A DNA stretch of 35,654 nt from Oscillospiraceae bacterium (GTDB taxonomy: Bacteria; Bacillota; Clostridia; Oscillospirales; Oscillospiraceae), in NCBI GenBank assembly GCA_015068325.1, contig SVKQ01000006.1, positions 1-35,654 of the forward strand. The letters are read 5' to 3'. The stretch's first letter is position 1. Every line of letters starts with the position of its first letter. Positions 3,123-35,654 of the stretch are shown here, one piece after another. The translations under genes were made by a program, and so were the position numbers. The notes beneath the pieces are model-generated. The model saw only the letters and a program-made list of their open reading frames with translations, was not told the DNA's origin and ran no database searches.

Positions 3123-3806
3123 TCAATCCCCGCCGGTCCAGCGGTAGTGGCCCGTCACCGGCTGGTGTCCCCGGCGGCCGGTCTCCACCGCCCCCTCCAG
3201 CGGGTTGCCGTGGTGGATGATCCAGGGGATGCCGTCGGCGCTCCGCCGGTCGGAGCAGACGGCGATGTGGTCCCGGTCGCCGAACACCACGATGTCACCC
3301 GGCTGCCACTGTTCCGGGTCATCGAAGCTGCAGGGCAGCACCTGGGCGTGGGCGGCAAAAAAGCGGTCCAGATTGCTGACCCGGCGGAAGTCGATGTTGC
3401 CGTCGGGATACCGGATGTTGTCGTACCGCTCCGGGTGGGCGGCGATGTCGGCGTCCACCAGATCCTTCAGCTCGTAGCCGGCGGCCCGGAAGGCCTGCCA
3501 GATCACGTCGGTGCACACGCCGGTGCCGTCGTCGGGATAGCCGCCGGCGAAGTAGCGGCTCTTGTAGCGGGGCCGGGTGGCGATGTAGGCCCGGGCGCCG
3601 GCCACCATGTCGTGCCAGTCGTCCGCACCGTCGCCGTCGGCGTCCAGCGGACTGCTGAGCTCCGCGATGCCCAGCTCCGCCGCCGTGTAGGAGCGCCGCG
3701 GCAGCTGCCGCCACAGCAGCGCGCCGACCGCCGCCAGCAGCAGGATCAGCACCGCCGGCCACCGCCTGCGCCGCGTCCGGCGCGTATATCGTCTCGTCCC
3801 GGTCAT
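3123..3806 (-). CDS. Membrane-anchored DUF1287 (YijF-like) protein, copy B
   Basis: This 227-aa paralogue of copy A has an Arg-rich N-terminus, one membrane helix (about residues 16-33) and the DUF1287 domain with GVCTDVIW, IDFRRVSNLDRFF, WQPGDIVVFG, DHIAVCSD and IIHHG. The DADGDGADDWHD calcium-loop pattern precedes the domain, as in copy A. The copies are most alike in the domain and its 3' flank and differ in the N-terminal anchor and linker, where copy A is longer. The ATG follows GGAGGG; a longer upstream reading has no good site. It has its own promoter (3836-3864), back to back with the XRE gene promoter. The enzymatic activity is unknown. Confidence 0.8.
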   Translation of the reverse strand: MTGTRRYTRRTRRRRWPAVLILLLAAVGALLWRQLPRRSYTAAELGIAELSSPLDADGDGADDWHDMVAGARAYIATRPRYKSRYFAGGYPDDGTGVCTDVIWQAFRAAGYELKDLVDADIAAHPERYDNIRYPDGNIDFRRVSNLDRFFAAHAQVLPCSFDDPEQWQPGDIVVFGDRDHIAVCSDRRSADGIPWIIHHGNPLEGAVETGRRGHQPVTGHYRWTGGD

Positions 3807-20357: not shown

Positions 20358-21640
20358 CCACCTTTGCCACGCTGTCCCCCGGCTGGCGGGGGCTGATCCT
20401 GCTGGCCAGCCTGCTGGTGCTGCTGTCCTGCATCCGCAGCCTGGCCGCCTCGCTGCGTCTGGGCGCCGGGAGCTCGGCGCTGCTGACCCGCTCGGCGCTG
20501 CTGCTGGCGGCGGTCTTCGTACTGCAGCAGACGCTGCTGGCCCGCCACGCCGGCGGCGCGCCGTCGCTGGCGTCGGTGCCGCTGGCGCTCACGCTGGCGG
20601 CGCTGGCGCTGCTGACCGTGTACACGGTGCTGCTGCGGGTGAACATCCTCCGCTGGCGGCGCACCCATATCACGCCCGACTCCGTCAAGGAGAGCTTCGA
20701 CACCCTGCCCACCGGCATCTGCTACTGTTGGCCCAACGGCCTGCCCAAGCTGGTCAACGCCCGGATGGACGAGGTCTGCCGCGCCCTGACCGGCGAGGCG
20801 CTGCTGGACGGCCGCGCTTTCTGGGCACGGCTGCAGGCGGGGGACGTGTCCGGCAGCCTCCGGGGCGGGGAGACGCCCATCTGCGTCCTGCCCTCCGGCG
20901 CGGCGATCAGCTTCCGCCGGACGGAGACGGAGCTGGCCGGCCGCCCCATCTGGCTGCTGGAGACGGCGGACGTCACCGAGGAGTACCGCCTGACCCGGGA
21001 GCTGGCGGAGAAGGAGAAGCAGGCCGGCCACCTGAACGCCCGGCTGAAGGCGCTGATGGGCACCATGGAGTACGTGGTCATGGAGCGGGAGCTGCTGGAG
21101 TTGAAGGCCGCCCTCCACGACAACGTGGGCCGGGGCCTGCTGCTGATCCGACGCTATTTGGCGCAGCCCGGCGCCGTGGACCGGCAGGAGCTGCTGTCCC
21201 TGTGGCGGCGGGACCTGCAGGCCCTAAAGAACGAGGAGCCGGAGGCCTGGCAGACACCCTATTTCGTCAGCCTGCGCCAGGCCTCGCTGCTGGGGGTGGA
21301 GGTGCGTGTCGAGGGCGAGCTGCCCCGGCAGGAGCACCTGCTGCCGGTGGTGGAGACGGCCCTGGCCACCCATGTGACCAACACTCTCCGCCACGCCGAG
21401 GGCAGCCGGGCGGTGGTCACCGTCCGGGACGAGGGGGCGCGCTATGTCCTCACCTTCACCAACGACGGCCGCCAGCCCGACGCCGACCTGCAGGAGACCG
21501 GCGGCCTGGCCAATCTGCGGCGGGAGGCGGAGTCCGTGGGCGGATCCATGGAGATCCGCACCGATGCGCGTTTGGAACTGATCCTGACATTGCCGAAGGA
21601 GGCGGATGAGCATGGCATACAGCGTGCTGATCGCGGATGA
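20354..21640 (+). CDS. Membrane-bound HisKA_3-type sensor histidine kinase
   Basis: This 428-aa protein has three N-terminal membrane helices (within about 10-97), a PAS-like segment (about 110-210, ending LLETADVTEEYRLTREL), a short coiled coil, then the H-box ELKAALHDNVGRGLLLIRRYL with phospho-acceptor His255. The ATPase part shows the N-box HVTNTLRHAEGS (N343), TNDGR (G1-like) and GGLANLR (G2-like), as in NarX/DesK-type kinases. It is translationally coupled to the membrane protein before it (4-bp overlap) and overlaps the response regulator after it by 35 bp. The expected partner is that regulator. Confidence 0.85.
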   Translation: MTTFATLSPGWRGLILLASLLVLLSCIRSLAASLRLGAGSSALLTRSALLLAAVFVLQQTLLARHAGGAPSLASVPLALTLAALALLTVYTVLLRVNILRWRRTHITPDSVKESFDTLPTGICYCWPNGLPKLVNARMDEVCRALTGEALLDGRAFWARLQAGDVSGSLRGGETPICVLPSGAAISFRRTETELAGRPIWLLETADVTEEYRLTRELAEKEKQAGHLNARLKALMGTMEYVVMERELLELKAALHDNVGRGLLLIRRYLAQPGAVDRQELLSLWRRDLQALKNEEPEAWQTPYFVSLRQASLLGVEVRVEGELPRQEHLLPVVETALATHVTNTLRHAEGSRAVVTVRDEGARYVLTFTNDGRQPDADLQETGGLANLRREAESVGGSMEIRTDARLELILTLPKEADEHGIQRADRG

Positions 21641-22235
21641 CTTCAAGATGATTCGCGAGGTGTTTGAGGAGGTGGTGGCCCAGTCGGACCGCTACGAGCT
21701 GGCGGCGTCGCTGTCCTCGGCGGCCCGGGCGGTGGATTTCTGCCGTGAGCACGCCGTGGATCTGGTGCTGCTGGACGTGCTGTTCCCCGGCGGCATGAGC
21801 GGCCTGGAGGCCGCCCGGCAGATCAAGGCCCTGCGGCCGGCGGCGAAGCTCCTGGTGGTCACCTCCATGCCGGAGGTGTCCTACATCCGCCAGGCCCGGG
21901 AGATCGGCGTGGACAGCTTCTGGCACAAGGAGGTGCAGGAGCAGCCCATCCTGGAGATCATGGACCGCACCATGGCCGGCGAGTCGGTCTATCCCGACGC
22001 GGTGCCGGCGGTGATGCTGGGCAGCATCCCCAGCACCGGCCTCACCGACCGGGAGCTGGAGGTACTGCGGGAGCTGGTGCGGGGCCTCACCAACCAGCAG
22101 ATCGCCGACGCCCTGGGGATCACCGAGCGCACCGTGCGCATGCATCTGGAGAACATGCTCTCCAAGACCGGCTTCCAGAGCCGTCTGGAGTTGGCGGTGC
22201 GGGCCCGGGGCACCGGCCTCATCATCAATGACTGA
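21606..22235 (+). CDS. NarL/FixJ-type response regulator (REC-LuxR HTH)
   Basis: This 209-aa protein has a receiver domain (about 4-120) with acidic pocket D11/D12, phospho-acceptor D57 (LLDVLFPGG), T86 and K108. A C-terminal LuxR-type helix-turn-helix follows (TDRELEVLRELVRGLTNQQIADALGITERTVRMHLENMLSKTGFQSR). The likely kinase is the product of the overlapping upstream gene. A second ATG two codons in is equally well spaced from GGAGG. The nearest downstream target candidate is the long leader and surface-fibre operon beginning after the terminator at 22269. Confidence 0.92.
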   Translation: MSMAYSVLIADDFKMIREVFEEVVAQSDRYELAASLSSAARAVDFCREHAVDLVLLDVLFPGGMSGLEAARQIKALRPAAKLLVVTSMPEVSYIRQAREIGVDSFWHKEVQEQPILEIMDRTMAGESVYPDAVPAVMLGSIPSTGLTDRELEVLRELVRGLTNQQIADALGITERTVRMHLENMLSKTGFQSRLELAVRARGTGLIIND

Positions 22236-22268: not shown

Positions 22269-22303
22269 GCGGCGGACGCCCACCCGGTGTCCGCCGCTTT
22301 TTT
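22269..22303 (+). terminator. Intrinsic terminator of the signalling operon
   Basis: A 12-bp stem with one G-U pair (22269-22280 with 22286-22297) is followed by TTTTTT. Confidence 0.9.
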
Positions 22304-22792: not shown

Positions 22793-23182
22793 ATGACGGA
22801 TCAGGAACTGCGAAAACTGAAGCGGTCGGAGCTGCTGACCATCATGCTCCACCAGGGCAAGACGGTGGCCGCGCTGCAGGAGCAGCTGGCCGAGGCCGAG
22901 AAGAAGCAGGCGGAGACGGCGGCCGAGCTGGAGACGCTCACCGCCACCTACGAGCGGCTGCGCAAAAAACTGGATGAGAAGGACGCGACGATCCGCCAGC
23001 TGCGCCGGACGGCCCAGGGCCCCGGCGGCGCGGCGGCGGGGCTGGAGAGCGATCTGACGTCCATCTCCGCCTCGGCCGACAAGCTCAGCCGCGTGGCGGA
23101 AACAGCCCGCCGCGCCGTGGAGCTGCACATCGCGGCGCTGTCCCGCCTGGCGGACCAGATGCCGCAGAGCGATAAAGGGTGA
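22793..23182 (+). CDS. Coiled-coil protein of the surface-fibre operon
   Basis: This 129-aa cytoplasmic protein begins MTDQELRKLKRSELLTIMLHQGK, which resembles small coiled-coil proteins often encoded beside signal peptidase and pilin genes in Clostridia. Residues about 25-75 form a strong heptad coiled coil (EEQLAEAEKKQAETAAELETLTATYERLRKKLDEKD-like). A Gly/Ala linker and a second amphipathic helix follow. No catalytic motif is seen. It ends 3 bp before the signal peptidase start, so the two are coupled. It might organise or regulate the secretion step, which is inference only. Confidence 0.75.
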   Translation: MTDQELRKLKRSELLTIMLHQGKTVAALQEQLAEAEKKQAETAAELETLTATYERLRKKLDEKDATIRQLRRTAQGPGGAAAGLESDLTSISASADKLSRVAETARRAVELHIAALSRLADQMPQSDKG

Positions 23183-23185
23183 CCC

Positions 23186-23881
23186 ATGGATCAGGAAAAC
23201 AAATTCACGCAGGAAAACCCCATACCGGTCGATGTGCCGTCTCCGGCGCCGCCGGAGACGCCGGATACTGCGCCGGCGGAGACGATACCGGCCCCACCGG
23301 CCCCGCCGGACGGGGAGGGCTCCCTCTCCCTGGAGCAGCTGGAGGCGGAGCTCAAGCGCGAGAAGAAGAAAAAGAACTTCGCCTCGGCCATCCGCAACAC
23401 GATCTTCACGCTGATCACCGTGGCGGCCATCGCGGTGCTGGTGGCGGTACTGCTGCTGCCGGTGCTGCAGATCTACGGCTCGTCCATGACGCCCACGCTG
23501 GAGGAGGGCAACATCGTGGTGTCCGTCCGGGGCAGCGAGTTCAAAACGGGCGAGGTCGTGGCATTCTACTATAATAATAATATACTGGTAAAGCGCGTCA
23601 TTGCCCACGCGGGCGACTGGGTGGACATTGACGACAGCGGCACGGTCTACGTGAACAGCGTGGCCCTTGACGAGCCGTATATCACCGACAAGGCATTCGG
23701 CGAGTGCAACATCGAGCTGCCCTATCAGGTGCCGGAGTCGCGGATTTTCGTCATGGGCGACCACCGGGACGTGTCCATCGACTCCCGCAACACGGCCGTG
23801 GGCTGTGTGGCAGACGAGCAGATCGTCGGCAAAATCATCTTTCGCGTCTGGCCTCTGGCCGACTTTGGCATTGTAAAGTAA
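23186..23881 (+). CDS. Signal peptidase I (S26, serine-lysine type)
   Basis: This 231-aa protein has a long cytoplasmic N-terminus rich in Pro and Ala (about residues 11-42), a basic stretch (KREKKKKN), one membrane helix (about 72-96), then an outer catalytic domain. The nucleophile is S100 in GSSMTPTL and the general base is K136 in ILVKRVIA. FVMGDHRDVSIDSRN is the conserved GDN/SRD-like box. The Ser-Lys dyad is the bacterial (P) type and not the Ser-His ER/SipW type, although SipW-style substrates follow in the same locus. It probably processes the surface proteins of this operon. Confidence 0.9.
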   Translation: MDQENKFTQENPIPVDVPSPAPPETPDTAPAETIPAPPAPPDGEGSLSLEQLEAELKREKKKKNFASAIRNTIFTLITVAAIAVLVAVLLLPVLQIYGSSMTPTLEEGNIVVSVRGSEFKTGEVVAFYYNNNILVKRVIAHAGDWVDIDDSGTVYVNSVALDEPYITDKAFGECNIELPYQVPESRIFVMGDHRDVSIDSRNTAVGCVADEQIVGKIIFRVWPLADFGIVK

Positions 23882-23931
23882 GTAACCGGAAATTGCTTTG
23901 AGGAAAAGCAACTGTCCAGGAGGGATTTGAA

Positions 23932-26900
23932 GTGGGAAAGCGAATGAAGAAGAGCAGCAAGTGGTACACCAGGGCGGCATGGCGTAATACCATCATTACG
24001 CTGGCGGCCGTTGTGGTGTTTGCCACGACATATGCGTTGATCCTGCCGGCGGCAACGCTGGACGGTGACACCGCCGAGGAGGACCCCGCGGTCCATCTGG
24101 AGGGGGAGTACACCGCTGCGGAGCTGACGGGGGAGCGGGAGACCGCGCCCGGCGACGTCGCCGTGACGGACGCTGAGACGGACGCCGCGGAGACCCCCGC
24201 CGAGGGCGAGGAGCCTGCGGATGCCGAGACCCCCGCCGAGGGCGAGGAGCCTGCGGATGCCGAGACCCCCGCTGAAGGCGAGGAGCCTGCGGATGCCGAG
24301 ACCCCCGCCGAGGGCGAGGAGCCTGCGGACGCCGAGACCCCCGCCGAGGGCGAGACTCCCGCGCCGGAGACCCCCGTCGAGCCCACCGCCCCCGTGGTCG
24401 TGAGCGAGCCGGTGGAGGAGGTCCCCGCCCGCGAGTTCATCGGCCCCGTCGCCATGCCCGCCTGCAGCTTCTCTGAGACGCTGGACGGCCTGGTGGTCGA
24501 GGTGGAGGCCCCCAAGGGCGCCTTCCCCCAGGGCACCACCATGCAGGTCACCTGGGTGGACGTGGACGACGACATGCTGGCCTCCATCGAGAGCAGCGTG
24601 GACGGCCAGGTGGCTCAGACCAAGGCAGTGGACATCACCTTCCGTGATGCCGACGGCGCCGAGGTCCAGCCGCTGGTGGAGATCCGCGTCTCCATGCGCG
24701 ATGCGCTGGTGGCCGAGGCCCGCGACCTGGAGGTCGTCCATGTGGACGCCGACGGCAACGCCGAGGTCGTCTCCCAGGCCGAGGACGACAGCGCCGACGA
24801 CGAGGTCATCTTCGACGCCAACCACTTCTCCGTCTATGTCCTGGTGGAGAAGGTCATCACCGAAGTGGTCATCACCGACTCCGGCGAGGTCTACACCGTC
24901 AACGTGACCTACGGTCCCGAGGCCGGGATCCCCGAGGGCTCCGGCCTGCAGATCACCGAATACGACGCGTCCAGCGCCGAGTACAAGGCCGCCATGGACG
25001 CCGTCGTCGCCGCCAAGCTGGCGGAGGATCCGGAGTTCGATCCCGCCACCCTGGGCATGTCCGCCCTGGACATCTCCATCATCGCCCCCGACGGCACCCC
25101 TGTGGAGCCCTCCGCCCCCGTCAAGGTGGAGATCGCCGGCAGCGCCCTCCCCGCGGATGCCGACGCCCAGGCCCTGCAGAGCACCATGGAGCTGCAGCAC
25201 ATCCGCAAGCTGGATGACGGCAAGCTCCAGGCCGAGAGCGTGGCCAACACCTATACCAATTACGGCGAGTTCGGCGGCAACATCACCGTTGCCGAGGATT
25301 CCCTCACCGCCACCTTCGATGTGGACGGCTTCTCCACCTTCTCCTTCACCTGGACCAGCTATGGCGTGCGCAGCAACATCATCGTCCACTATGTGGACGT
25401 CAACGGCAACGAGATCCAGGGCCCCCACACCGGCGACGTGGCCCAGACCGCCCAGAACAACAGCAGCACCTGGACCGTCACCTTTGCCAGCTCCAACTAC
25501 GAGGGCGGCATCACCAACTACACCTTCAAGGAGGCCCGCCTGGGCGACGTGACCGGTCCCAAGGTCACCGGCGCCCGCTTCGAGCGGAAGTGGATGCCCG
25601 ATTACACTACGGAGAACCACGAGGTCGACGGCCACTACGTCCACAATGTGGTCCTGCTGAACGGCACCACCACGGTGCAGGAGTTCACCGGCCCCGCCAA
25701 CGTGGAGGTCTACTTCGTCTACGAGCTCACGGAGGTCCCCCCCGGAGGGCAGACCCCCGGCCTGAACGCCCCCGACACCGACAAGACCCTGGTGCGGCAG
25801 GACGACGGCACCTATGACATCACCCTCAGCATCTCCGGCAGCGCCAAGGTGGATCCCGACAAGAAGAAGGCCAACGTGCTGGTTATCTACGACACCTCCG
25901 GCAGTATGGAGACCACGGAGACCACCACCGACTACGTGGAGGACCCCGACGGCGACTACGTCCTGGTGGACGGCGAGTATGTGCGCCTCACCCAGCGGAA
26001 CGGCTGGTACATGAACGGCCAGCCCTACTACGGCTACCGCTACAAGCAGTCCACCTCCAACAGCCCCACCACACAGTACGGCATCCGCAACGGCAATGTC
26101 ATCGATGTCTATTACAACGACGGCAACTGGTACAGGACCCGCACCCAGCGCGGCAACTGGATAACCGGCTACTACTACACCTACAGCAACCCCTACAACG
26201 GCACCCGCTATGTCCGCGTCAACAACGGTGACAGCGACACCTCCTACAACCTGGGCTGGAACCAGGCCACCGGTCAGATGGTGGAGCTGACCTACGAGGA
26301 GGGCCTTTACTACACCGTGGGCGGCACCTCCTACAAGTATGACGGCGAGACCCGGTACAGGGAGGTCACCACCACCAAGTCCCGCCATGAGATCGCCAAG
26401 GCGGCCGTCACCAGCCTGGCCAACAAGCTGCTGGGCATGAACGGCGCCAACGGGAACGACAACGACATGGTGGAGATGGCCCTCATCGAGTTCGACTCCC
26501 TGGTTCACCGTATCAACGGCGCCAACGTGTCCACCCCCGGCGCCAAGACCAGCAGCAAGGACACCTTCCTCAAGTGGGTCAATGGCGACGACAACACCGC
26601 CGGCATCACCATTCCCGGTACCGACAACAACCGCCGCGGCACCAACTGGGAGGACGCCCTGGATTACGCCAACCGCTACAGCTGGGGCGACACCGATCCC
26701 GTCTACATCGTCTTCGTCTCCGACGGACAGCCCACCTTCCGCATCAGCAAGAACGGCCATCAGGACGGCCGCGGGAACAACAACAACTCCGTCAACACCT
26801 CGGGCGGCGGCCGCACGGTGGCCATCTGGGGCTCGGGCTACCACGACGACAACGAGTACAACATCGACGCGGCGGTGATGGTGGCCAAGTCCATCCTGGC

Positions 26901-29292
26901 CAGCAACAAGGACCTCTACACCGTGGGCGCCTTCGTGGATCCCGAGCACAGCAAGATGCCCAACCTGGGCGGCGCCGACTACGACGCCAGCAACTCCGAG
27001 AACCTGAACAGCGCCTTCAACGACATCGTCTACAGCATCACCAACGCCCTGAACATCGCCAACGTCCAGATCACCGACGGTATCACCGCCCTGACGGCCA
27101 GCGCCCTGGTGGCCGGCGACATCGATCCCAGCACCTTCCGCTACACCAAGGGCGGCGAGCCCTGGTCCCCGGTGGCGGACGGCGCCAACGGCGCCGAGCT
27201 GGTGGTGGATGACGAGACCGGCGCCCAGAGCATCCAGTGGAACATGGGCGAGAACTACGTGCTGGAGCCCAATGTCACCTACACCGTCACCTTCACCGTC
27301 TGGCCCAAGCAGGAGGCCTACGACACCCTGGCCAACCTGAACAACGGCCTGATCTTCTACGACTACGCCGACTATCTGGCCCGCAGCACCGACAATCCCA
27401 AGAAGACCGAGGCGGAAGCCAGGGCGGCCGACCTGCTCCTGAGCGACACCCTGAAGGCGCAGATCATCAAGAGCGGCAACACCTACACCGTCAAGACCAA
27501 CACCGAGGCCGGCGTCACCTATCAGGAGGTCACCTACAAGAACGGCGAGGAGACCGGACGCTCCGAGGAGAAGGAAGTGCCCATCGAGAACCCGACCAAC
27601 GGCATGGGCCTGTCCGAGTCCACCATCCAGGTCCAGAAGGTCTGGAACGACTCCCTGGATCCCACCCAGCTCCTGAAGATGCTGGAGAGCGACCCCAATT
27701 ACAAGGTCCGCCTGTGGATCACGCTGGACTCCGGCGACTATGTGGAGGTCACCATCGCCCCGCAGATCACCTATGACGCCAACGGCAAGGTCACCGGCGC
27801 CACCTGGCCCATCGCCACGGCCTACATCGCCCCCGGCGTCATGCTGGATGTGGACAGCGCCGAGGCCAAGGGCATCGACGTGGAGGACACCGACAAGTAT
27901 CCCCACGTGACCTACAACGGCGTGGAGTACGTCGTGCTGGAGTCGGGCCACGACTACAGCATCGACGAGCAGGCCACCGATTACCACTTCGAGCTGTCCA
28001 CCGGCACCTACCACCCCATGGTGGTCAACGGCGAGACCTATAACGTCACCTTCATCTACAAGACCGATCCCGACACCGGCGAGATCCTGAGGGATGCGGA
28101 TGGCAACCCCATCGTCGACGGCATCGAGGCCATGGATACCGACAACAGCGGCACCCTGGTGGCCACCAACGAGCTGCGCGCCGGTCTGAACATGCGCAAG
28201 ATCGTCCTGGACGAGGCCGGCAACGAGATCTATCCCACCGAGGAGACCTTCTACTACCGCGCCGTGCTGAAGGGCGCCGACGGCAGGGAGATCCTCTTCT
28301 CCAACTACATGCTCACCCAGGAGCAGATCGACGCCATCGAGAACTATGAGGCCGCGCCGTACCTGGCCGACGACGGGACCACGGCGACGGTGGATGTCAA
28401 CCAGGATACCTACCCCATCTGGTACAACATCTACTACGGCGCCTATGACGACCTGGATACCGACGGCACCTACATCCCCGAGGGCCAGCAGTACTACAAC
28501 CGCAGCCCCGGTATGGTCATCCAGAACGGCGGCATCGTGGCGCTGAAGGCCGGCGAGGTCATCCGCTTCGCCAACATCCCGCTGGGCACCCACATCGAGC
28601 TGGTGGAGGTCAATATCCCCGACGGCTACGAGTTCGAGAAGTACGAGACCAAGGTGGGCAAGAACACCTCCACCTGGACCACCAGCGAGGACGTGGCCTC
28701 CGGCATCGTGGTGCCGGACGCCAAGGGCAACACCTCCTACTACTTCGTCACCACCAACGTGCAGAAGGGCATGGAGGTCGAGCTGATCAAGGTGGACACC
28801 GGCGACAGCTCCAAGACGCTGTCCGGCGCCGAGTTCGAGCTCTACAAGGTGATCCCCGCGGTGTTGGATGAGGACGGCGTCACCGTCATCACGCCGGAGA
28901 GCCGCCAGAAGATCGGCACCACCTGGACCACCGACAGCGAGGGCAAGCTCGCCTTCGGCACGCTGGAGATCGGCACCTACAAGCTGGTGGAGACCAAGGC
29001 CCCGGCCGGCTACAACCTGTCCGACAGCGAGATCACCATCTACGTGACTGCGGACGGCGTGACCTATGACCAGCCCGACAACGCGGCCTCCAACACCAAG
29101 CTGACGCCCACTGTGCGGGACGGCGTGAAGGTCTATACCATCACCGTCACCAACTCCAAGGGCGCGGTCCTGCCCCACACCGGCGGCGCCGGTACCTTCC
29201 TCTATACATTGTGCGGCCTGATGCTCATGGCGTCCGCCGCTGCAGTGTACGGCTTCAGAATGAGGCGTAGAGAAAGGGGGACCGCTCGTTGA
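23932..29292 (+). CDS. Giant VWA-domain tip pilin / adhesin with LPHTG sorting signal
   Basis: This 1786-aa surface protein starts at a GTG 8 bases after AGGAGG. Its signal segment is WRNTIITLAAVVVFATTYALILPAATL (about residues 17-43). Next come ETPAEGEEPADA repeats (about 87-141), beta-rich regions, a MucBP-like segment (NIIVHYVDVNGNEI), and a von Willebrand A domain. The MIDAS residues are DTSGSM (654-659) and FVSDG (D931), separated by a Tyr-rich insertion. Cna_B/SpaA-like domains follow (VQKVWND...; VELIKVD with K1620; LVETKAPAGY with E1687). It ends with LPHTG (1747-1751), a hydrophobic span and a basic tail. VWA plus Cna_B domains are typical of pilus-tip adhesins. The receptor is unknown. 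Confidence 0.9.
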   Translation: MGKRMKKSSKWYTRAAWRNTIITLAAVVVFATTYALILPAATLDGDTAEEDPAVHLEGEYTAAELTGERETAPGDVAVTDAETDAAETPAEGEEPADAETPAEGEEPADAETPAEGEEPADAETPAEGEEPADAETPAEGETPAPETPVEPTAPVVVSEPVEEVPAREFIGPVAMPACSFSETLDGLVVEVEAPKGAFPQGTTMQVTWVDVDDDMLASIESSVDGQVAQTKAVDITFRDADGAEVQPLVEIRVSMRDALVAEARDLEVVHVDADGNAEVVSQAEDDSADDEVIFDANHFSVYVLVEKVITEVVITDSGEVYTVNVTYGPEAGIPEGSGLQITEYDASSAEYKAAMDAVVAAKLAEDPEFDPATLGMSALDISIIAPDGTPVEPSAPVKVEIAGSALPADADAQALQSTMELQHIRKLDDGKLQAESVANTYTNYGEFGGNITVAEDSLTATFDVDGFSTFSFTWTSYGVRSNIIVHYVDVNGNEIQGPHTGDVAQTAQNNSSTWTVTFASSNYEGGITNYTFKEARLGDVTGPKVTGARFERKWMPDYTTENHEVDGHYVHNVVLLNGTTTVQEFTGPANVEVYFVYELTEVPPGGQTPGLNAPDTDKTLVRQDDGTYDITLSISGSAKVDPDKKKANVLVIYDTSGSMETTETTTDYVEDPDGDYVLVDGEYVRLTQRNGWYMNGQPYYGYRYKQSTSNSPTTQYGIRNGNVIDVYYNDGNWYRTRTQRGNWITGYYYTYSNPYNGTRYVRVNNGDSDTSYNLGWNQATGQMVELTYEEGLYYTVGGTSYKYDGETRYREVTTTKSRHEIAKAAVTSLANKLLGMNGANGNDNDMVEMALIEFDSLVHRINGANVSTPGAKTSSKDTFLKWVNGDDNTAGITIPGTDNNRRGTNWEDALDYANRYSWGDTDPVYIVFVSDGQPTFRISKNGHQDGRGNNNNSVNTSGGGRTVAIWGSGYHDDNEYNIDAAVMVAKSILASNKDLYTVGAFVDPEHSKMPNLGGADYDASNSENLNSAFNDIVYSITNALNIANVQITDGITALTASALVAGDIDPSTFRYTKGGEPWSPVADGANGAELVVDDETGAQSIQWNMGENYVLEPNVTYTVTFTVWPKQEAYDTLANLNNGLIFYDYADYLARSTDNPKKTEAEARAADLLLSDTLKAQIIKSGNTYTVKTNTEAGVTYQEVTYKNGEETGRSEEKEVPIENPTNGMGLSESTIQVQKVWNDSLDPTQLLKMLESDPNYKVRLWITLDSGDYVEVTIAPQITYDANGKVTGATWPIATAYIAPGVMLDVDSAEAKGIDVEDTDKYPHVTYNGVEYVVLESGHDYSIDEQATDYHFELSTGTYHPMVVNGETYNVTFIYKTDPDTGEILRDADGNPIVDGIEAMDTDNSGTLVATNELRAGLNMRKIVLDEAGNEIYPTEETFYYRAVLKGADGREILFSNYMLTQEQIDAIENYEAAPYLADDGTTATVDVNQDTYPIWYNIYYGAYDDLDTDGTYIPEGQQYYNRSPGMVIQNGGIVALKAGEVIRFANIPLGTHIELVEVNIPDGYEFEKYETKVGKNTSTWTTSEDVASGIVVPDAKGNTSYYFVTTNVQKGMEVELIKVDTGDSSKTLSGAEFELYKVIPAVLDEDGVTVITPESRQKIGTTWTTDSEGKLAFGTLEIGTYKLVETKAPAGYNLSDSEITIYVTADGVTYDQPDNAASNTKLTPTVRDGVKVYTITVTNSKGAVLPHTGGAGTFLYTLCGLMLMASAAAVYGFRMRRRERGTAR
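24190..24354 (+). repeat. 36-bp tandem repeats in the tip-adhesin gene (about 4.6 copies)
   Basis: Units start at 24190, 24226, 24262, 24298 and 24334 (the last partial) and encode ETPAEGEEPADA. Copies differ by only a few bases, mostly synonymous. The repeat is a multiple of three, so changes in copy number would alter stalk length without loss of frame. Confidence 0.9.
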
Positions 29293-29389
29293 TGCCCCCG
29301 CTCTCGACGAAAATCTGATACGCCGAGTCTGAAACCGCAATAGATTTGTTTTTCCCAAAAAATTTATTTTATGAAAGGAAAAAGAAGCA

Positions 29390-30847
29390 ATGAAGAGCAC
29401 CAAGAAGATCCTGGCGGTCCTGCTGGCCCTGGTCATGACCATGGCTCTGACCGTCACCGCTTTCGCTACCACCACCAACCCCACGGAGGACACCACCCCC
29501 GTCGGCGAGGCCACCACCGGCAACGGCAAGATCACCATCACCGTGAATCCTCCCGCTGACAACCCCGATCAGAACGCCACCAACGAGACCTACACCGCCT
29601 ACATGATCTTCCGCGTGGAGAAGGGCGCTGTTCCCGCTGAGGGCGACCAGCCCATCACCTACTACCTGATCAACCCCACCACCGATCCCGCCGCTGACAA
29701 CGACAAGGCCCTGATCGCTGCTGTGAAGGATGTCGCGGACGAGGATGGCAACAAGTACTTCACCGCTACTCCCTCTGCTGACGGCACCCGCACCACCTTC
29801 GCTCTGGTGAACGAGAACACCGATCCCATCAAGCTGGCTGACGCTCTGCTGGCCGCCCTCAAGGCCGCCAACATCGCCGGCACGGCCCTGCAGGTCGGCG
29901 ACAACACCGTGGACGCCGGTTACTACCTGATCACCTCCACCCTCGGCACCAACCTGATCCTGGCCACCGCCGACTTCACCGTGGAGGAGAAGAACCTGTA
30001 TCCCAGCGTCACCAAGTCCGTTGACAAGGCTGCCGCCCAGATCGGCGACACCCTGACCTACACCCTGACCGTCACCATCCCCAAGAGCGCCAAGGGCGAG
30101 ATCGTCCTGACCGACACCATGGCCGCCGGCATCACCTATGCCGCCGCCACCGCCGTGGAGGGCGTGACCTTCGCCGCCAACGGCCAGACCCTGACCGTCA
30201 CCCTGTCCGAGGACTATGTGGAAGCCAACAAGGGCACCACCGTCACCTTCACCTACACCGCTACCCTGAACACCTCCGCTGTCATCGGCCAGAAGTCCGG
30301 TGAGGTCATCAGCGGCGTCGTCACCGGCTATGCCACCGACGGCAACTTCAACACCGTGTACCTGACCTACTCCCAGTTCAAGACCCAGACCTACGGCGTC
30401 GATACCGACACCTATGAGGCCACTATCAAGAAGGTCGACAAGAAGACCAATGCGCCTCTGCCCGGCGCCAAGTTCACCGTGGCCCGCGCTGACGGCACTC
30501 CCGTCAAGTTCACTCTGACCAACGGCGTGTACGTGGTCGATCCCGCCGGCACCGTCACCGAGGTCGAGTCCGATGCCAACGGCCTGATCAAGATCCAGGG
30601 CCTGAACACCGAGACCTATGTCCTGACCGAGACCGATGCTCCCGACGGCTACAACCTGCTGGAGGGCACCAAGGACCTGGTCGTCACCGCTGGCACCAAC
30701 GCCATCGAGCTGACCGTTGAGAACGAGACCGGCACCGTGCTGCCCAGCACCGGCGGCATCGGCACCAAGCTGTTCTATGTGGTCGGCGCCATCCTGGTCA
30801 TCGGCGCCGGTGTGGTGCTGGTCGCCCGCAAGCGCGTGGAGGACTGA
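29390..30847 (+). CDS. Major pilin (SpaA/FimA-like) with LPSTG sorting signal
   Basis: This 485-aa protein has a signal peptide (KKILAVLLALVMTMALTVTAFA), an N-terminal pilin domain, the pilin-motif-like NLYPSVTK (K209 is the candidate lysine for inter-subunit linkage), an isopeptide domain (VTKSVDKAAAQIGDTLTYTLTV...), a C-terminal SpaA/Cna_B domain (ATIKKVDKKTNAPLPGAKFTV...) with E-box YVLTETDAPDGYNLL (E414), then LPSTG (451-455), a hydrophobic span and RKRVED. This is the layout of polymerised backbone pilins. It carries more GCT and other 'fast' codons than its neighbours, which fits high expression. A GC hairpin follows at 30896-30927. Confidence 0.9.
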   Translation: MKSTKKILAVLLALVMTMALTVTAFATTTNPTEDTTPVGEATTGNGKITITVNPPADNPDQNATNETYTAYMIFRVEKGAVPAEGDQPITYYLINPTTDPAADNDKALIAAVKDVADEDGNKYFTATPSADGTRTTFALVNENTDPIKLADALLAALKAANIAGTALQVGDNTVDAGYYLITSTLGTNLILATADFTVEEKNLYPSVTKSVDKAAAQIGDTLTYTLTVTIPKSAKGEIVLTDTMAAGITYAAATAVEGVTFAANGQTLTVTLSEDYVEANKGTTVTFTYTATLNTSAVIGQKSGEVISGVVTGYATDGNFNTVYLTYSQFKTQTYGVDTDTYEATIKKVDKKTNAPLPGAKFTVARADGTPVKFTLTNGVYVVDPAGTVTEVESDANGLIKIQGLNTETYVLTETDAPDGYNLLEGTKDLVVTAGTNAIELTVENETGTVLPSTGGIGTKLFYVVGAILVIGAGVVLVARKRVED

Positions 30848-30895
30848 TCCCCGCCGCTGAACGCGATCATCCCATAGATTAACGCTACTTACCCA

Positions 30896-30927
30896 CCCGC
30901 CGCGGGGGCGCAGACCCCCGCGGCGGG
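30896..30927 (+). promoter_or_regulatory. Intercistronic GC hairpin between major pilin and sortase
   Basis: A perfect 13-bp stem (30896-30908 with 30915-30927, 6-nt loop) has no T-run, and a second smaller GC hairpin follows at once. It is likely to protect the pilin mRNA or reduce read-through, so that sortase is made in smaller amounts. Confidence 0.65.
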
Positions 30928-30961
30928 GAGGGAGACCCCCTCCAACAGCAAGGAGAGACCT

Positions 30962-31888
30962 ATGAAGAAAAAGAAGAAGAGCAGGAAGAGCCGGATCATC
31001 AACCTCATACTGATCGCCGTCTTCCTCGTAGGTTTGTCCTTGCTGCTGTACCCCACCTTCAGCAACTGGTGGAACTCCTTCCACCAGACCCGCGCCATCA
31101 TGCACTACATGGAGACCGTCTCCCACATGGATACGGCGGAGTATGAGCGGATCATTACCAGTGCCCAATCCTACAACGACGATATGCGCACCATGCACTG
31201 GGACATGACCGACGAGGCTCTGGAGACGTACAATGGCGAGCTGGACGCCAACGGCGACGGCAACATGGGTTACATCACCATCCCCAAGATCAACGTGATG
31301 CTGCCCATCTTCCACGGCACGGACGAGAGCGTGCTGCAGAGCAGCATCGGCCACCTGGAGTGGTCCAGCCTGCCGGTAGGCGGCAAGACCAGCCACTGTG
31401 TGCTGTCCGGTCACCGGGGCCTGCCCTCGGCCCGGCTGTTCACCGACCTCGACAAGCTGGTGGTGGGCGACACCTTCACGTTGAGCATCCTCAACGAGAT
31501 CCTCACCTACGAGGTGGATCAGATTCGGGTGGTGGAGCCCACTGACCTGAGCACCGTGCAGCTGGTGCCGGGGCGCGATTACTGCACGCTGGTCACCTGC
31601 ACGCCCTACGGCATCAACAGCCACCGGCTCCTGGTGCGGGGACACCGCATCGCCAACGCCCAGGGCGAGGCCAAGGTGGTGGCCGACGCCATGCAGATCG
31701 AAACCGTCTATGTGGTGCCCTTTGTGGGCGTCCCGATCCTGACGCTGCTGTTGATCATGCTGCTGATCGTCACCGGCCGGGGCAAGCGCAAGGGCGCGGA
31801 GTACCGGGAGATCCTGGAGCTGGACCGCATCATGGACGACGTAGAGGACCCGACCCATGAGAACACGCGGAAACAGCAGGATATATAA
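30962..31888 (+). CDS. Class C sortase (pilin polymerase)
   Basis: This 308-aa membrane transpeptidase cleaves LPXTG-type signals between Thr and Gly and joins pilin subunits through a lysine. It has a basic N-terminus and membrane helix (about 12-30) and a catalytic domain with GYITIPKINVMLPIFHGT, LSGHRG (H151), TLVTCTPYGINSHRLLVRGHR (C213, R222). A second membrane helix near the C-terminus (about 250-275) marks class C. The lid region ahead of GYITIPK lacks an obvious DPW/DPF motif. Position directly after the major pilin supports its role as that pilin's polymerase. The ATG follows AAGGAGA. Confidence 0.93.
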   Translation: MKKKKKSRKSRIINLILIAVFLVGLSLLLYPTFSNWWNSFHQTRAIMHYMETVSHMDTAEYERIITSAQSYNDDMRTMHWDMTDEALETYNGELDANGDGNMGYITIPKINVMLPIFHGTDESVLQSSIGHLEWSSLPVGGKTSHCVLSGHRGLPSARLFTDLDKLVVGDTFTLSILNEILTYEVDQIRVVEPTDLSTVQLVPGRDYCTLVTCTPYGINSHRLLVRGHRIANAQGEAKVVADAMQIETVYVVPFVGVPILTLLLIMLLIVTGRGKRKGAEYREILELDRIMDDVEDPTHENTRKQQDI

Positions 31889-31931
31889 AGAAGTAAGAAA
31901 CAGGAAACTTTTCGATAGAGGATGGGTTGCC

Positions 31932-32987
31932 ATGAAGAAGAGAATTCATTCCATTGTTGCGCTGGTCCTGGTTTGCGCGCTGGTGCTGGCCCTGCCCATG
32001 TGGGCGGCCCGGGCCGATGCGCTGGACCTGGACCGGAACGGATCGATGACGTTCAAGCTGGGCTCCTTTGAGGACCTGGAGAACGCCGATGCGGTCGTCG
32101 ACGTCTACAAGGTGGCGGATCTGGAGCCGGACAAGGTGTACAGCACCTTCTCCTTCAACGTTCTGAAGGGGATCGAGCTGTCCAAGCCCATCGCCGCCTA
32201 CGAGGATCTGGCGGCCCTGACCAACGAGGATTGGCAGACGCTGGCGCAGGACGCGGCCAGGAGCGTGCTGAACGGGGCCTTTGATCCCGCCGGTGACAAT
32301 GCCGACCTGCCCTGCGGCCTGTACCTGATCGTGGCCCACGGTGCCGATCTGGAGAAGGATGAGTATGTCGTGGAGGACGATGGGGGCAATCTGACCACCA
32401 TCGCCTACTCCGACGAGTACGTCTACACCTGGCTGCCGGAGCTGGTCTGCCTGCCCAGCACCGTGGCGGAGATCACCGGCGAGGTGGGTGAGGACGGCAG
32501 CCGTCAGGAGATCAGCACCGCCGGCGGCGACTGGCAGTATGACCTGACCGTGACGCTCAAGCCCACCCAGGAGGTGCGCTTCGGCGACCTGCTGGTCACC
32601 AAGACCGTCACCACCTATGAGACCAGCGGCCCCGCCACCTTCGTGTTCAGCGTGGTGGCCACTCTGCGCGACAAGGTGGTGTACGACGACATCCTGGCCC
32701 TGACCTTCGACGCGGCCGGCTCCCGCACCGCCGAGATCCGGGGCAAGATCCCCGTGGGTGCCACCGTGGTGGTGACCGAGATCTACAGCGGCGCCAGCTA
32801 TACCCTCACCACCGACGAGTCGGTGGAGGTGACCGTCGTGACGCCAGACCAGGATCCCGCCACCGCCGAGTTCACCAATACCTATGACGAGACCCTGAAT
32901 CAGGGCTACGGCATCCTCAACCAGTTTGCCTACAGCGCCGATACGGGTTGGGAACTTGCAGACAACGAGCACGATAGTGCTGCGTAA
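31932..32987 (+). CDS. Secreted Cna_B-like protein without sorting signal
   Basis: This 351-aa protein has a signal peptide (KKRIHSIVALVLVCALVLALPMWAARA). Its N-terminal region resembles pilin N-domains (MTFKLGSFEDLENADAVVDVYKVADL...LPCGLYLIVAHG). A C-terminal Cna_B-like domain follows (FGDLLVTKTVTTYETSGPATFVFSV...VTEIYSGASYTL...AEFTNTYDE). It ends in a polar tail (ELADNEHDSAA) without LPXTG or a hydrophobic anchor. It may be a minor or basal pilus component, or a released factor. The ATG follows TAGAGGA, 43 bp after the sortase stop. Confidence 0.75.
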   Translation: MKKRIHSIVALVLVCALVLALPMWAARADALDLDRNGSMTFKLGSFEDLENADAVVDVYKVADLEPDKVYSTFSFNVLKGIELSKPIAAYEDLAALTNEDWQTLAQDAARSVLNGAFDPAGDNADLPCGLYLIVAHGADLEKDEYVVEDDGGNLTTIAYSDEYVYTWLPELVCLPSTVAEITGEVGEDGSRQEISTAGGDWQYDLTVTLKPTQEVRFGDLLVTKTVTTYETSGPATFVFSVVATLRDKVVYDDILALTFDAAGSRTAEIRGKIPVGATVVVTEIYSGASYTLTTDESVEVTVVTPDQDPATAEFTNTYDETLNQGYGILNQFAYSADTGWELADNEHDSAA

Positions 32988-33000
32988 GGGGGGCTGAGAC

Positions 33001-33510
33001 ATGCGGAAAAGTAAAATCGTTTTGACAGTCCTTGCGCTCGTGCTGGTGGCCGGTTTGTCCATCAGCTCTGCCCTGGCCTACTTTACGGCCCACACGAGCG
33101 CGGTGGGCACGGTGACGATCCACGCCGGTACGAGCACCGAGATCGAGGAGCCCACCGTTTCCCAGTGGACCAAGCACCTGGTGATCTCCAACAAGGGCCC
33201 CGCCGACTGCTACATCCGGGCCCGGGCCTACGCCGGCAGCGAGCTGGAGCTGACCTATGACGGCACCGGCTGGACTGACGGCGGCGACGGCTGGTATTAC
33301 TACGACGCCGTCGTGCCCGGCGGCAGCGATGCCGAGGAGCTGCTGGTGCACATCGGCAACGTGCCCACGGCCGAGCTGGCCGAGGACGGCGACAGCTTCA
33401 ATGTGGTCGTGGTGTACGAGAGCGCCCAGGTCCTCTATGACGCGGACGGCAATCCCTATCCCGCCGACTGGACCCAGGCGGCGAATATTGTGGAAGGAGG
33501 GCAGAACTGA
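33001..33510 (+). CDS. TasA/camelysin-like protein with SipW-type signal sequence
   Basis: This 169-aa protein begins RKSKIVLTVLALVLVAGLSISSALAYFTAHTSAVGTVTI. The ALAYFT cleavage region is the hallmark of SipW-dependent fibre proteins. The mature part has WTKHLVISNKGPADCYIRARAYAGSELELTYDGTGWTDGGDGWYYYDAVVPGG, the beta-sandwich pattern of TasA/camelysin relatives. No C-terminal anchor is seen. It is 13 bp downstream of the Cna_B-like gene and overlaps the next start by one base (TGATG). Fibre or matrix function is inferred from family resemblance. Confidence 0.8.
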   Translation: MRKSKIVLTVLALVLVAGLSISSALAYFTAHTSAVGTVTIHAGTSTEIEEPTVSQWTKHLVISNKGPADCYIRARAYAGSELELTYDGTGWTDGGDGWYYYDAVVPGGSDAEELLVHIGNVPTAELAEDGDSFNVVVVYESAQVLYDADGNPYPADWTQAANIVEGGQN

Positions 33511-34208
33511 TGCGTGAGAAGAGAATCCCCTTCTCGGCGATCACGGTGGTCCTGCTGGTTCTGGCCGTTGGGCTGCTGCTGTTCAGCACCATCGGCGGCG
33601 CCCGCGCCGCGTTGGGCGATCCGGCCACCTACTCTGCCGAGGTGTCCATGAAGAGCATCGGCCTGGTGCTCAACGAGAACGGGACCCCCATCGAGGACGG
33701 CAAGCTGCTGTCCCGGCTGCTCAGCGGCCAGGAGGACTTCGTCCCCGGCAAGAGCTACGACGAAGTGCTGACCGTCTCCAACACTGGCAAGATCGACGAG
33801 TATGTCCGCCTGACCATCTACAGATACTGGCTGGGCGAGAACGGCAAGCGCACTGACCTGGATCCCGCCCTGATCCGGCTGACCCTGGGGACGGACGGCT
33901 GGGTGGAGGACAAGGACGCCTCCACCGCCGAGCGCACGGTGCTCTATTACACCAAGCCCCTGGAGGCCGAGGGCGATCCCACCTCCGCCGCGCTGACGGC
34001 GGTGATGGTGGACAACGCCGTGGCCACCGGCGTGCAGCAGGTGAGGAGCGGCAACACCATCACCACCATCTACGCCTACGACGGCATGCAGTTCGGGCTG
34101 GAGATCGAGGTGGACGGCGTGCAGACCCATAACGCCGCCGACGCGATCCTCAGCGCCTGGGGCATCGAGACCACCGTGGGCGCCGACGGCACGCTGAGCC
34201 TGAACTAA
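33510..34208 (+). CDS. Second TasA-like / SipW-associated secreted protein
   Basis: This 232-aa protein has an N-terminal segment ITVVLLVLAVGLLLFSTIGGARAALGDPATYSAEVSMKSIGLVLNENG, a pattern recurrent in Clostridial proteins encoded with SipW-type fibres. The mature part contains LTVSNTGKIDEYVRLTIYRYW, again TasA/camelysin-like. No sorting motif or second membrane helix is present. It starts at the overlapping TGATG behind AAGGAGG, so its translation is coupled to the preceding fibre-like protein, and the pair may form one structure. Confidence 0.78.
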   Translation: MREKRIPFSAITVVLLVLAVGLLLFSTIGGARAALGDPATYSAEVSMKSIGLVLNENGTPIEDGKLLSRLLSGQEDFVPGKSYDEVLTVSNTGKIDEYVRLTIYRYWLGENGKRTDLDPALIRLTLGTDGWVEDKDASTAERTVLYYTKPLEAEGDPTSAALTAVMVDNAVATGVQQVRSGNTITTIYAYDGMQFGLEIEVDGVQTHNAADAILSAWGIETTVGADGTLSLN

Positions 34209-34222
34209 AGGAGGAGACGAAG

Positions 34223-34930
34223 ATGAAGAAACGTATCGCGAGTCTGCTCCTGGCGGCGCTGCTGCTGGCCTGTGTGGGTGTAACGGCCTATGCCGACCCC
34301 TACAACGGGCAGGAGGGTCTGGCCGTGGAATACGACGGCGAGAAGCTGACCCCCAACTATGACGCCTCGGCCTTTGCCGACCAGCTGGGTGAGCTGCAGC
34401 CCGGCGACGACATCACCTTTACCATCGCGCTGATCAACGGCGACGAAAACGACGTGGACTGGTGGATGAACAACAAGATCCTGGAGAGCTTTGAGGATAC
34501 CGGCGCTGCCTCCGGCGGCGGCGCGTATGAGTACGAGTTGACCTATGTGGGCCCCGACGGCGCTGAGGACGTGATCTACAGCAGCAGCATCGTCGGCGGC
34601 GAGGACACCACCGCCGGCGAGGGCCTCCACGAGGCCACCGGCGCCCTGGAGGATTTCTTCCACCTGGGCACCATGACCAAGGGCCAGCAGGGCCAGATCA
34701 TCTTGAAGATCGCCCTGGACGGCGAGACCCAGGGCAACGTCTACCAGAGCACCGTGGCCGACCTGCAGATGCAGTTCGCCGTGGAGCCCCAGGCCGATGA
34801 GCCCACGCCCCCGGTCAAGACCGGCGACGAGATGAACCTGATGCCCTACCTGATCGCCTCGGCTGCCAGCGGCCTGGCGCTGCTGGTGATCGTGGCCTTC
34901 CGGATGAAGAAGAGCAAGCAGACGCATTGA
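34223..34930 (+). CDS. Surface protein with VKTGD sorting-like signal
   Basis: This 235-aa protein has a signal peptide (KKRIASLLLAALLLACVGVTAYA). Its folded region (about 35-190) has YEYELTYVGPDGAEDVIYSSSIVGGE and ALDGETQGNVYQSTVADLQMQFAVE, a pattern I associate with proteins encoded beside SipW-type genes in Clostridia. A Pro-rich spacer, VKTGD (198-202), a hydrophobic span and RMKKSKQTH follow. The last part is built like a sortase signal but lacks LPXTG, so a different sortase, or simple membrane anchoring, is likely. The ATG follows AGGAGG. Confidence 0.75.
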   Translation: MKKRIASLLLAALLLACVGVTAYADPYNGQEGLAVEYDGEKLTPNYDASAFADQLGELQPGDDITFTIALINGDENDVDWWMNNKILESFEDTGAASGGGAYEYELTYVGPDGAEDVIYSSSIVGGEDTTAGEGLHEATGALEDFFHLGTMTKGQQGQIILKIALDGETQGNVYQSTVADLQMQFAVEPQADEPTPPVKTGDEMNLMPYLIASAASGLALLVIVAFRMKKSKQTH

Positions 34931-34944
34931 GAGGGACGAGGAAT

Positions 34945-35565
34945 ATGAAGAAAGTGAAATGGATCACGGGAGCCCTGCTCTCCCTGGGCCTGACCCTCTC
35001 CCTGATGGTCACGGCGCTGGCGGCGAACGGCTACTCCTACACGGCGACCATGTCCGGCGGCCTGCACGGTACCGTTTCCCAGAAGAGCGACACCTTCTCC
35101 TACAACGAGCAGTGGAACCCCAACGACTATACCGTCACCGTGACGGACGGCAAGTACTACTTCAAGGGCTTCCATATCGCCGGCCAGGAGGGCGTCGTGG
35201 GTACCACCCGTATGACCAAGGACACGGATTTCGTGGCGGCCTACGGCGTGCGGGGCGACAACACGGTGGCCTACACCGTCAATTACTACGATGCTGACGG
35301 CAACCCCATTCCCGGCTATCCCAGCCAGACCTTCTACGGCGAGGCCGGTGAGAAGCCCGTGGTGGCCTTCATCTACATCGAGGGCTATCGGCCCCAGGCC
35401 TATAACCTGACCAAGACGCTGAGCAAGAACGAAGCGGAGAATGTGTTCACCTTCGAATACACCCCCGTGGAGACCACGCCCGGCGGCGAGGGCGGTGAAG
35501 GCGGCGGCCAGGGCGGCGGCGGCCAGGGCCGGCGGCCAGGGCGGCAACACCGAGCCCGGCGGTAA
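34945..35565 (+). CDS. MucBP-like secreted protein, reading frame broken near 35530
   Basis: As read, this is a 206-aa product. It has a signal peptide (KKVKWITGALLSLGLTLSLMVTALA), an N-terminal domain (YTATMSGGLHGTVSQKSDTFSYNEQW...), a MucBP-like segment (VAYTVNYYDADGNPIPGYPSQTFYGEAGEKP...FTFEYTPVE) and a Gly-rich stretch. The frame ends at 35563-35565 right after RRPGRQHRARR, which looks like out-of-frame Gly repeat. With one base fewer at the CC of 35529-35530, the protein continues as GGQGGNTEPGG repeats that stay open to the window end. A true frameshift, phase-variable switch or sequencing error are all possible. The start follows GACGAGGA. Confidence 0.7.
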   Translation: MKKVKWITGALLSLGLTLSLMVTALAANGYSYTATMSGGLHGTVSQKSDTFSYNEQWNPNDYTVTVTDGKYYFKGFHIAGQEGVVGTTRMTKDTDFVAAYGVRGDNTVAYTVNYYDADGNPIPGYPSQTFYGEAGEKPVVAFIYIEGYRPQAYNLTKTLSKNEAENVFTFEYTPVETTPGGEGGEGGGQGGGGQGRRPGRQHRARR

Positions 35566-35654
35566 CACCGAGCCCGGCGGCAATACCGAACCCGGCGGCA
35601 ATACCGAACCCGGCGGCAATACCGAACCCGGCGGCAATACCGAACCCGGCGGCA
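35546..35654 (+). repeat. 18-bp tandem repeats encoding NTEPGG, running off the window
   Basis: Six units begin at 35546, 35564, 35582, 35600, 35618 and 35636. The first two use AAC/GAG codons and the rest AAT/GAA, and the later copies are identical as far as the window runs. They are in frame with the MucBP-like protein only after a one-base correction near 35530. Recent expansion is likely. Confidence 0.9.

What the first reader, a model, noticed from the sequence alone, without database searches (positions are those of the whole stretch)
22793..35654. Composite surface-fibre locus: sortase pilus genes fused with SipW/TasA-like fibre genes
One collinear set of plus-strand genes holds a tip adhesin (LPHTG), backbone pilin (LPSTG), class C sortase and signal peptidase. 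It then continues, with short gaps and a TGATG overlap, into two proteins with SipW-type signal sequences and TasA/camelysin-like bodies, a VKTGD protein, and a repeat-bearing MucBP protein. Sortase pili and TasA fibres are normally described as separate systems. Joint expression would suggest a mixed fibre, or a pilus embedded in its own matrix.
Basis: partly seen in the sequence, partly recalled or inferred. Interest (0 to 1): 0.75.

Follow-up and report, generated by a model that had tools for sequence, protein, structure and literature searches.

The report
Sortase pilus joined to SipW fibre
In this bacterium one string of genes encodes both a covalently stitched surface pilus and the parts of a second, SipW-processed fibre system; distant relatives keep the same gene order, and the pilus base protein has lost its usual wall anchor, which suggests that the two are built together.

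Summary
The gene set is real and is part of a conserved unit. The window is one whole contig; the locus runs on to the next contig, where the first gene after the shared repeat is the missing SipW (Ser/His) signal peptidase. Full order: coil - signal peptidase I - LPHTG tip - LPSTG backbone - class C sortase - DUF5979 base-pilin homologue - two BsaA-like SipW substrates - VKTGD protein - repeat protein - SipW. A base-pilin profile, blind to neighbours, found 12 further copies without a sorting signal; both SipW-substrate genes follow directly in 12 of 12 (17 of 17 counting the five known before). Class C sortase is directly upstream in 14 of 17; SipW is in the locus in 13 of 13 genomes with enough sequence. 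The 11 stand-alone base-pilin homologues of ordinary pilus loci all carry a sorting signal and no such neighbours. Two genomes encode one LPETG protein that combines the base-pilin N-domain with a SipW-substrate body. I read the locus as a covalent pilus whose base docks on a SipW-processed layer. Conservation is shown; docking is inferred. The TasA/camelysin and MucBP labels were not confirmed by family models.

The parts
22269..22297 (+). intrinsic-terminator-like site separating the upstream sensor/regulator genes from the locus
   Evidence: 12-pair stem plus T run
22793..23182 (+). short coiled-coil gene at the start of the locus
   Evidence: ORF; similar stretches in L119, L120, L121, L123, L124 and L073; function not known
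23186..23881 (+). signal peptidase I, bacterial (Ser/Lys) type
   Evidence: TIGR02227 115.6 bits over cut-off 47; Ser and Lys present in alignment
23932..29292 (+). tip adhesin, 1786 aa from GTG (or ATG at 23944), LPHTG sorting signal
   Evidence: SpaA, DUF7604 and Gram_pos_anchor matches
29390..30847 (+). backbone pilin, LPSTG
   Evidence: TIGR04226 69 bits, SpaA and anchor
30897..30926 (+). strong hairpin (12 pairs, loop of 6) without T run between backbone and sortase genes
   Evidence: the whole gap folds at -53.1 kcal/mol against shuffles -35.6, sd 3.5
30962..31888 (+). class C (pilus) sortase
   Evidence: NF033745 266.8 bits over cut-off 160
31932..32987 (+). FctB-like base-pilin homologue with no sorting signal; conserved K224/E283/N316 and a tail with N-x-F
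   Evidence: DUF5979; 17 copies compared: no anchor in any, these residues kept in all
33001..33510 (+). sub1: BsaA-like SipW substrate, signal ends SALAYFT
   Evidence: TIGR04090 below cut-off in 6 of 11 homologues; Y27 F28 invariant in 11
33510..34208 (+). sub2: BsaA-like SipW substrate, overlaps sub1 (TGATG)
   Evidence: TIGR04090 below cut-off in 7 of 9 homologues; G29, A33, A34 of the IGGARAAL region invariant in 9
34223..34930 (+). VKTGD protein, probable class B sortase substrate
   Evidence: TGD invariant in 6 aligned homologues, each with a hydrophobic tail
34945..35654 (+). repeat protein (MucBP-like by eye), runs off the contig; its tail and SipW are on contig C4
   Evidence: ORF and 18-bp PGGNTE repeat; the repeat occurs in the genome only at the end of C3 and the start of C4; tail at C4 1-285, SipW at C4 278-883

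Best explanation
One co-directional operon makes a composite surface fibre. Shown by sequence: (1) a class C sortase with LPHTG and LPSTG substrates, the equipment of a covalent pilus; (2) a base-pilin homologue placed where ordinary loci have their wall-anchored base pilin, but with the sorting signal replaced by a conserved tail; (3) two BsaA-like proteins with their own Ser/His signal peptidase, SipW; (4) a KTGD protein with a class B type sorting signal, and a membrane-tailed repeat protein; (5) conservation of this order. Inferred: the sortase adds the base-pilin homologue as the last, membrane-proximal subunit; lacking a sorting signal, it cannot be moved to peptidoglycan; instead its tail docks non-covalently on sub1/sub2, which SipW matures and which assemble like BsaA/TasA proteins; the KTGD protein, linked to the wall by class B sortase, and the repeat protein hold this layer to the cell. 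The pilus would thus be seated on, or embedded in, its own SipW-processed base layer.
For: 12 anchorless base-pilin copies found by the profile alone: sub1 and sub2 follow directly in 12 of 12; with the five loci known before (window, L089, L093, L098, L102) 17 of 17, from 15 genomes. Class C sortase directly upstream in 14 of 17. Median pairwise identity of the 17 is 29%, so they are not recent copies. SipW in the locus in 13 of 13 genomes with enough sequence, with Ser and His in 9 of 9 aligned. Of the 11 stand-alone profile hits that have a sorting signal, none has sub1/sub2 genes detected beside it. Natural fusions base-pilin N-domain + SpaA + sub1 body + LPETG in two genomes that also carry the composite locus (sub1 49.6 and 62.8 bits; reversed sequences 3.2 bits or less). 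SipW::class B sortase fusion in L098, both models over cut-off. A class B-like sortase in the locus in 9 of 13 genomes (model tested for L098 and L102 only); the own genome has one elsewhere. C. difficile SrtB cleaves SPKTG/PPKTG peptides (PMC4155245, passages).
Against: No physical contact, transcript or fibre was tested. AlphaFold models of sub1 and sub2 are weak (mean pLDDT 61 and 58) and TasA was not among the listed matches. One genome, G406 (L123), has the SipW half with signal peptidase I but no SrtC or backbone hit (the tip was not searched for), so that half can exist without the pilus; two of three copies in G727 have no adjacent SrtC. On the SrtC tree the composite loci are not one clade: 3 changes, at least 2 forced. 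SrtC and sub2 distances are not significantly correlated (r 0.22, P 0.14, 8 loci). In G424 and G426 no KTGD or repeat gene was found downstream of sub2. In C. perfringens srtB deletion did not alter BsaA polymers, and BsaA made in E. coli also polymerised (PMC7395162, passages).
Confidence: 0.55

Rival explanations
1. Co-expression only: the operon makes two separate structures, covalent pili and a SipW-type matrix, needed at the same time but not touching.
For: SipW modules with homologous KTGD proteins stand alone in the same genus: KTGD homologues were found in 5 of 31 congeners (G030, G008, G012, G014, G007), on contigs that also hold SipW (four) or SipW-substrate-like genes (G030); the class C sortases of four of these genomes lie on other contigs and G007 has none. 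G406 (L123) has the SipW half without SrtC or backbone hits.
Against: Loss of the base-pilin sorting signal exactly where sub1/sub2 are neighbours and the natural base-pilin/sub1 fusions are not explained by co-expression alone.
Confidence: 0.25
2. sub1/sub2 are assembly helpers (chaperone-like, as TapA or CapP in Bacillus) for the pilus, not fibre subunits.
For: Both are small and occur once each per module in fixed order; a chaperone-like SipW substrate is known (CapP, PMC13082335, passages).
Against: Their only family match is to BsaA, a structural matrix protein; in the fusions the sub1 body is part of an anchored pilin-like protein.
Confidence: 0.12
3. The anchorless base pilin ends the pilus without wall linkage, so pili are shed and form extracellular matrix; the SipW proteins are a parallel matrix component.
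For: No sorting signal in any of the 17 copies.
Against: Does not explain the conserved tail (pattern present in 17 of 17, against 1 of 11 anchored homologues; the pattern was drawn from the same 17) or the strict linkage to sub1/sub2.
Confidence: 0.08

Closest known systems
Streptococcus pyogenes FCT pilus locus (cpa-sipA-fctA-srtC-fctB)
   Same: signal-peptidase homologue, tip, backbone, sortase and base pilin in one cluster (order from PMC4049620, passages)
   Different: here the pilus sortase is class C, signal peptidase I keeps Ser/Lys (SipA has lost them), the base-pilin homologue has no sorting signal, and a SipW module follows
Clostridium perfringens sipW-bsaABCRSD with srtB (PMC7395162, passages)
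   Same: SipW peptidase, BsaA-type secreted proteins, a sortase gene next door
   Different: no sortase-type pilins or class C sortase in the passages read; BsaA polymerised without srtB; here the substrates match the BsaA family only below its cut-off
Bacillus tapA-sipW-tasA / sipW-tasA-calY
   Same: dedicated SipW peptidase and paired secreted substrates
   Different: the B. cereus system is described as sortase-independent (PMC13082335, passages); no TasA/camelysin family match here
Stand-alone SipW clusters in the same genus (G030, G008, G012, G014, G007)
   Same: KTGD protein near SipW or SipW substrates, repeat-protein homologue in G030
   Different: no FctB-like ORF at E <= 1e-3 in the stretches held and no class C sortase on those contigs

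Membership tests
class C sortase-dependent pilus | class C sortase over the curated cut-off | tested here: met
   266.8 bits, cut-off 160
class C sortase-dependent pilus | backbone and tip with LPxTG sorting signals and isopeptide-type domains | tested here: met
class C sortase-dependent pilus | base pilin with its own wall sorting signal | tested here: not met
   no sorting signal in the window protein or the 16 composite homologues; present in 11 of 11 stand-alone homologues from ordinary loci. So not a canonical three-part anchored pilus, though the class C polymerisation core is present
class C sortase-dependent pilus | covalent polymer on the cell surface | not testable with these tools
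   needs immunoblot or microscopy
SipW-dependent matrix system | ER-type (Ser/His) signal peptidase in the locus | tested here: met
   TIGR02228 93.9 bits over 51.85 on contig C4; Ser and His aligned; the Bacillus SipW model NF046067 gives 75.3 bits, below its cut-off 190
BsaA family (TIGR04090) | match over the curated cut-off | tested here: not met
   22.1 and 23.0 bits against 60; 6 of 11 and 7 of 9 homologues match it at E <= 0.01 and no other family was listed
TasA/camelysin family | family or fold match | tested here: inconclusive
   no TasA or camelysin family at E <= 0.01; models too weak for a fold comparison
class B sortase substrate | xKTGD-type signal with hydrophobic segment and charged tail, class B sortase in the genome | tested here: met
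   alignment; own class B sortase over cut-off on contig C1; cleavage itself not testable here

The most novel reading that the evidence does not exclude
A hybrid surface organelle: a covalent sortase pilus whose base pilin gave up wall anchoring and, through a conserved C-terminal tail, docks on SipW-processed BsaA-type subunits that are held to the wall by a class B sortase substrate.
Probability: 0.45. Interest if true: 0.85.

Novelty: new variant of a known kind. Interest (0 to 1): 0.72.

Why it matters
Gram-positive fibres are usually described as two kinds: sortase-linked pili and SipW-dependent, sortase-independent matrix fibres. A conserved operon that holds both, with a base pilin that lost its anchor and natural fusions between the two kinds of subunit, would give a defined case to test how a covalent pilus can be seated without its own wall linkage and how pili and matrix are built together. 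The titles of related MAGs (rumen, duodenum, faeces) suggest bacteria of animal guts.

Tried and rejected

Literature: six searches of open-licence PubMed Central; no title or abstract start in the listings described such an operon, and the four papers looked into were seen as passages only. Subscription papers and preprints are not held.

Full report
What is there. The window is contig C3 of a 1.96 Mb, 95% complete genome. Plus-strand genes from 22793 encode a short coiled coil, a bacterial-type signal peptidase I, a 1786-residue LPHTG protein, an LPSTG backbone pilin and a class C sortase. Upstream is a terminator-like site at 22269-22297.

The locus continues. A search of the own genome for the archaeal/ER-type signal peptidase family gave one match over cut-off, 419 bases into contig C4. 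C4 opens with the same repeat in frame with a hydrophobic, lysine-rich tail; the SipW start overlaps its end by 8 bases. A 30-base piece of the repeat occurs five times in the genome, only at the end of C3 and the start of C4. In relatives the repeat-protein and SipW genes overlap by 4 to 43 bases in 5 of 5 pairs measured (in L102 the repeat gene is part of a longer frame and was not measured). After SipW the sequence shows a hairpin with a T run, read by eye. The repeat protein's frame changes near 35540; an error at a contig end is possible.

Conservation. A scan with the sortase protein returned 20 named loci. Four of the 20 (L089, L093, L098, L102; labelled Oscillospiraceae, Erysipelotrichaceae and Clostridia MAGs) carry the DUF5979 gene followed by sub1 and sub2; L089 and L093 are cut by contig ends. 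In the other 16 these were not detected; several of those contigs are short. A profile of the DUF5979 protein then found 8 of 394 order genomes, 6 of 300 family genomes and 2 of 391 class genomes, own included each time; G890 gives the same coordinates as L089 and is taken as the same genome. Two of these, G265 (L126) and G992 (L145), are ordinary pilus loci with an LPQTG base pilin. The rest add 12 copies without a sorting signal: G225, G424, G426, G406, G186, G346, G1001, G1035, G980 and three in G727. These were found blind to their neighbours, and sub1 and sub2 follow directly in 12 of 12; with window, L089, L093, L098 and L102 this makes 17 of 17 copies in 15 genomes. A class C sortase gene is directly upstream in 14 of 17 (not in G406, nor in two of the three G727 copies). 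KTGD and repeat protein follow in 13 of 15 copies with enough sequence, in L102 and L144 as one frame; in G424 and G426 they were not found downstream, and SipW, with a short KTGD-like match, sits at the other end of the locus. SipW is present in 13 of 13 genomes with enough sequence. The sortase-to-DUF5979 gap is -11 to 51 bases in 10 of 10 loci measured. Median identity between the 17 copies is 29%, highest 49%.

The base pilin. In 2375 ORFs from the loci numbered 69 and up (composite loci and small duplicate stretches set aside), the profile also found the protein that follows the class C sortase in ordinary loci: 10 homologues (one duplicate stretch not counted) plus the two fusions below; L145 adds an eleventh. 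All 11 end in a sorting signal: LPQTG in seven, VPQTG, LAQTG, PQTGD or PKTGD in the others; none has sub1/sub2 genes detected beside it. None of the 17 composite copies has a sorting signal. Fisher's test on the first 10 and 11 gave 2.8e-6, but the rows are related. Instead each of the 17 ends, after the last strand, with a tail containing N-x-F; the pattern was drawn from these 17, and 1 of 11 anchored proteins matches it by another stretch. K224, E283 and N316 are invariant in 17 of 17, as expected from recalled knowledge of the Lys/Glu/Asn triad of CnaB-type isopeptide domains; the bond itself is inferred.

The SipW half. SipW aligns with Ser and His in 9 of 9, while the signal peptidase I of the window has Lys. 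sub1 and sub2 match only TIGR04090, the BsaA family, in 6 of 11 and 7 of 9 homologues; the window members lie below its cut-off. The KTGD protein resembles class B sortase substrates; C. difficile SrtB cleaves SPKTG and PPKTG peptides (PMC4155245, passages). A class B-like sortase lies in the locus in 9 of 13 genomes, fused to SipW in L098 (both models over cut-off) and in G727 (own profiles, frame cut by the stretch end); the own genome has one on contig C1.

Natural fusions. In G426 and G424, which both carry the composite locus, a second gene encodes a 603/628-residue protein: DUF5979-type N-domain (115.9/112.3 bits), SpaA domain, sub1 body (49.6/62.8 bits) without SipW-type signal, and an LPETG signal; the first also matches TIGR04090 weakly (19.9 bits). 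Reversed sequences scored 3.2 bits or less. This is the best sequence hint that the two kinds of subunit belong to one structure.

Against a simple story. In the genus (32 genomes with own), KTGD homologues occur in 5 of 31 congeners, on contigs without class C sortase. G406 has the SipW half without SrtC or backbone hits. The SrtC tree places composite loci in three spots (3 changes, at least 2 forced). Distance correlations: SrtC-FctB r 0.31 P 0.015; SrtC-sub1 0.41 P 0.0046; FctB-sub1 0.62 P 0.0019 (10 loci); SrtC-SipW 0.61 P 0.0012 (7 loci); SrtC-sub2 0.22 P 0.14 (8 loci). The SipW half thus behaves as a unit that has been combined with, or separated from, pilus cores more than once. Structure models were too weak to test the TasA fold.

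Comparison. The pilus half matches the gene content of the S. pyogenes FCT cluster (cpa-sipA-fctA-srtC-fctB; PMC4049620, passages), but with intact Ser/Lys in the peptidase and an anchorless FctB-like protein. The SipW half works like C. perfringens sipW-bsaA, where srtB lies next door and its deletion did not change BsaA polymers (PMC7395162, passages), and like Bacillus TasA/CalY/CapP, called sortase-independent (PMC13082335, passages). Six literature searches showed no account of the combination in their listings.

Verdict. That the two halves form one conserved unit is well supported; that they make one physical fibre is the leading inference, not a result.

Noticed in passing
G727:C14, loci L146 and L147: Three successive copies of the base-pilin homologue, sub1, sub2, KTGD and repeat-protein genes on one contig; a SipW::class B sortase frame follows one of them.
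   Followed up: partly
L098 13694-15163: One open frame joins an ER-type signal peptidase to a class B sortase, both over curated cut-offs.
   Followed up: partly
window 30897-30926: Very strong hairpin without T run between the backbone and sortase genes. The same gap also folds more stably than shuffles in L102, L124 and L125 and only slightly so in L098; it may set backbone excess.
   Followed up: partly
window 18729-22235: Two sensor-like proteins (by eye; no family match at E <= 0.001) and a LuxR-type response regulator directly upstream, followed by a terminator-like site; possible regulator of the locus.
   Followed up: no
window 24190-24354: 36-bp tandem repeat (4.6 copies) in the tip adhesin gene.
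   Followed up: no
L098 15297-19662 and L076 8364-11999: By eye, similar transglutaminase-like and PilT-like genes follow the SipW module in both loci.
   Followed up: no
window 2052-2876 and 3123-3752: Two neighbouring minus-strand ORFs that look alike by eye at their ends (PYIIHHGTLEEG and PWIIHHGNPLEG), probably a gene duplication.
   Followed up: no
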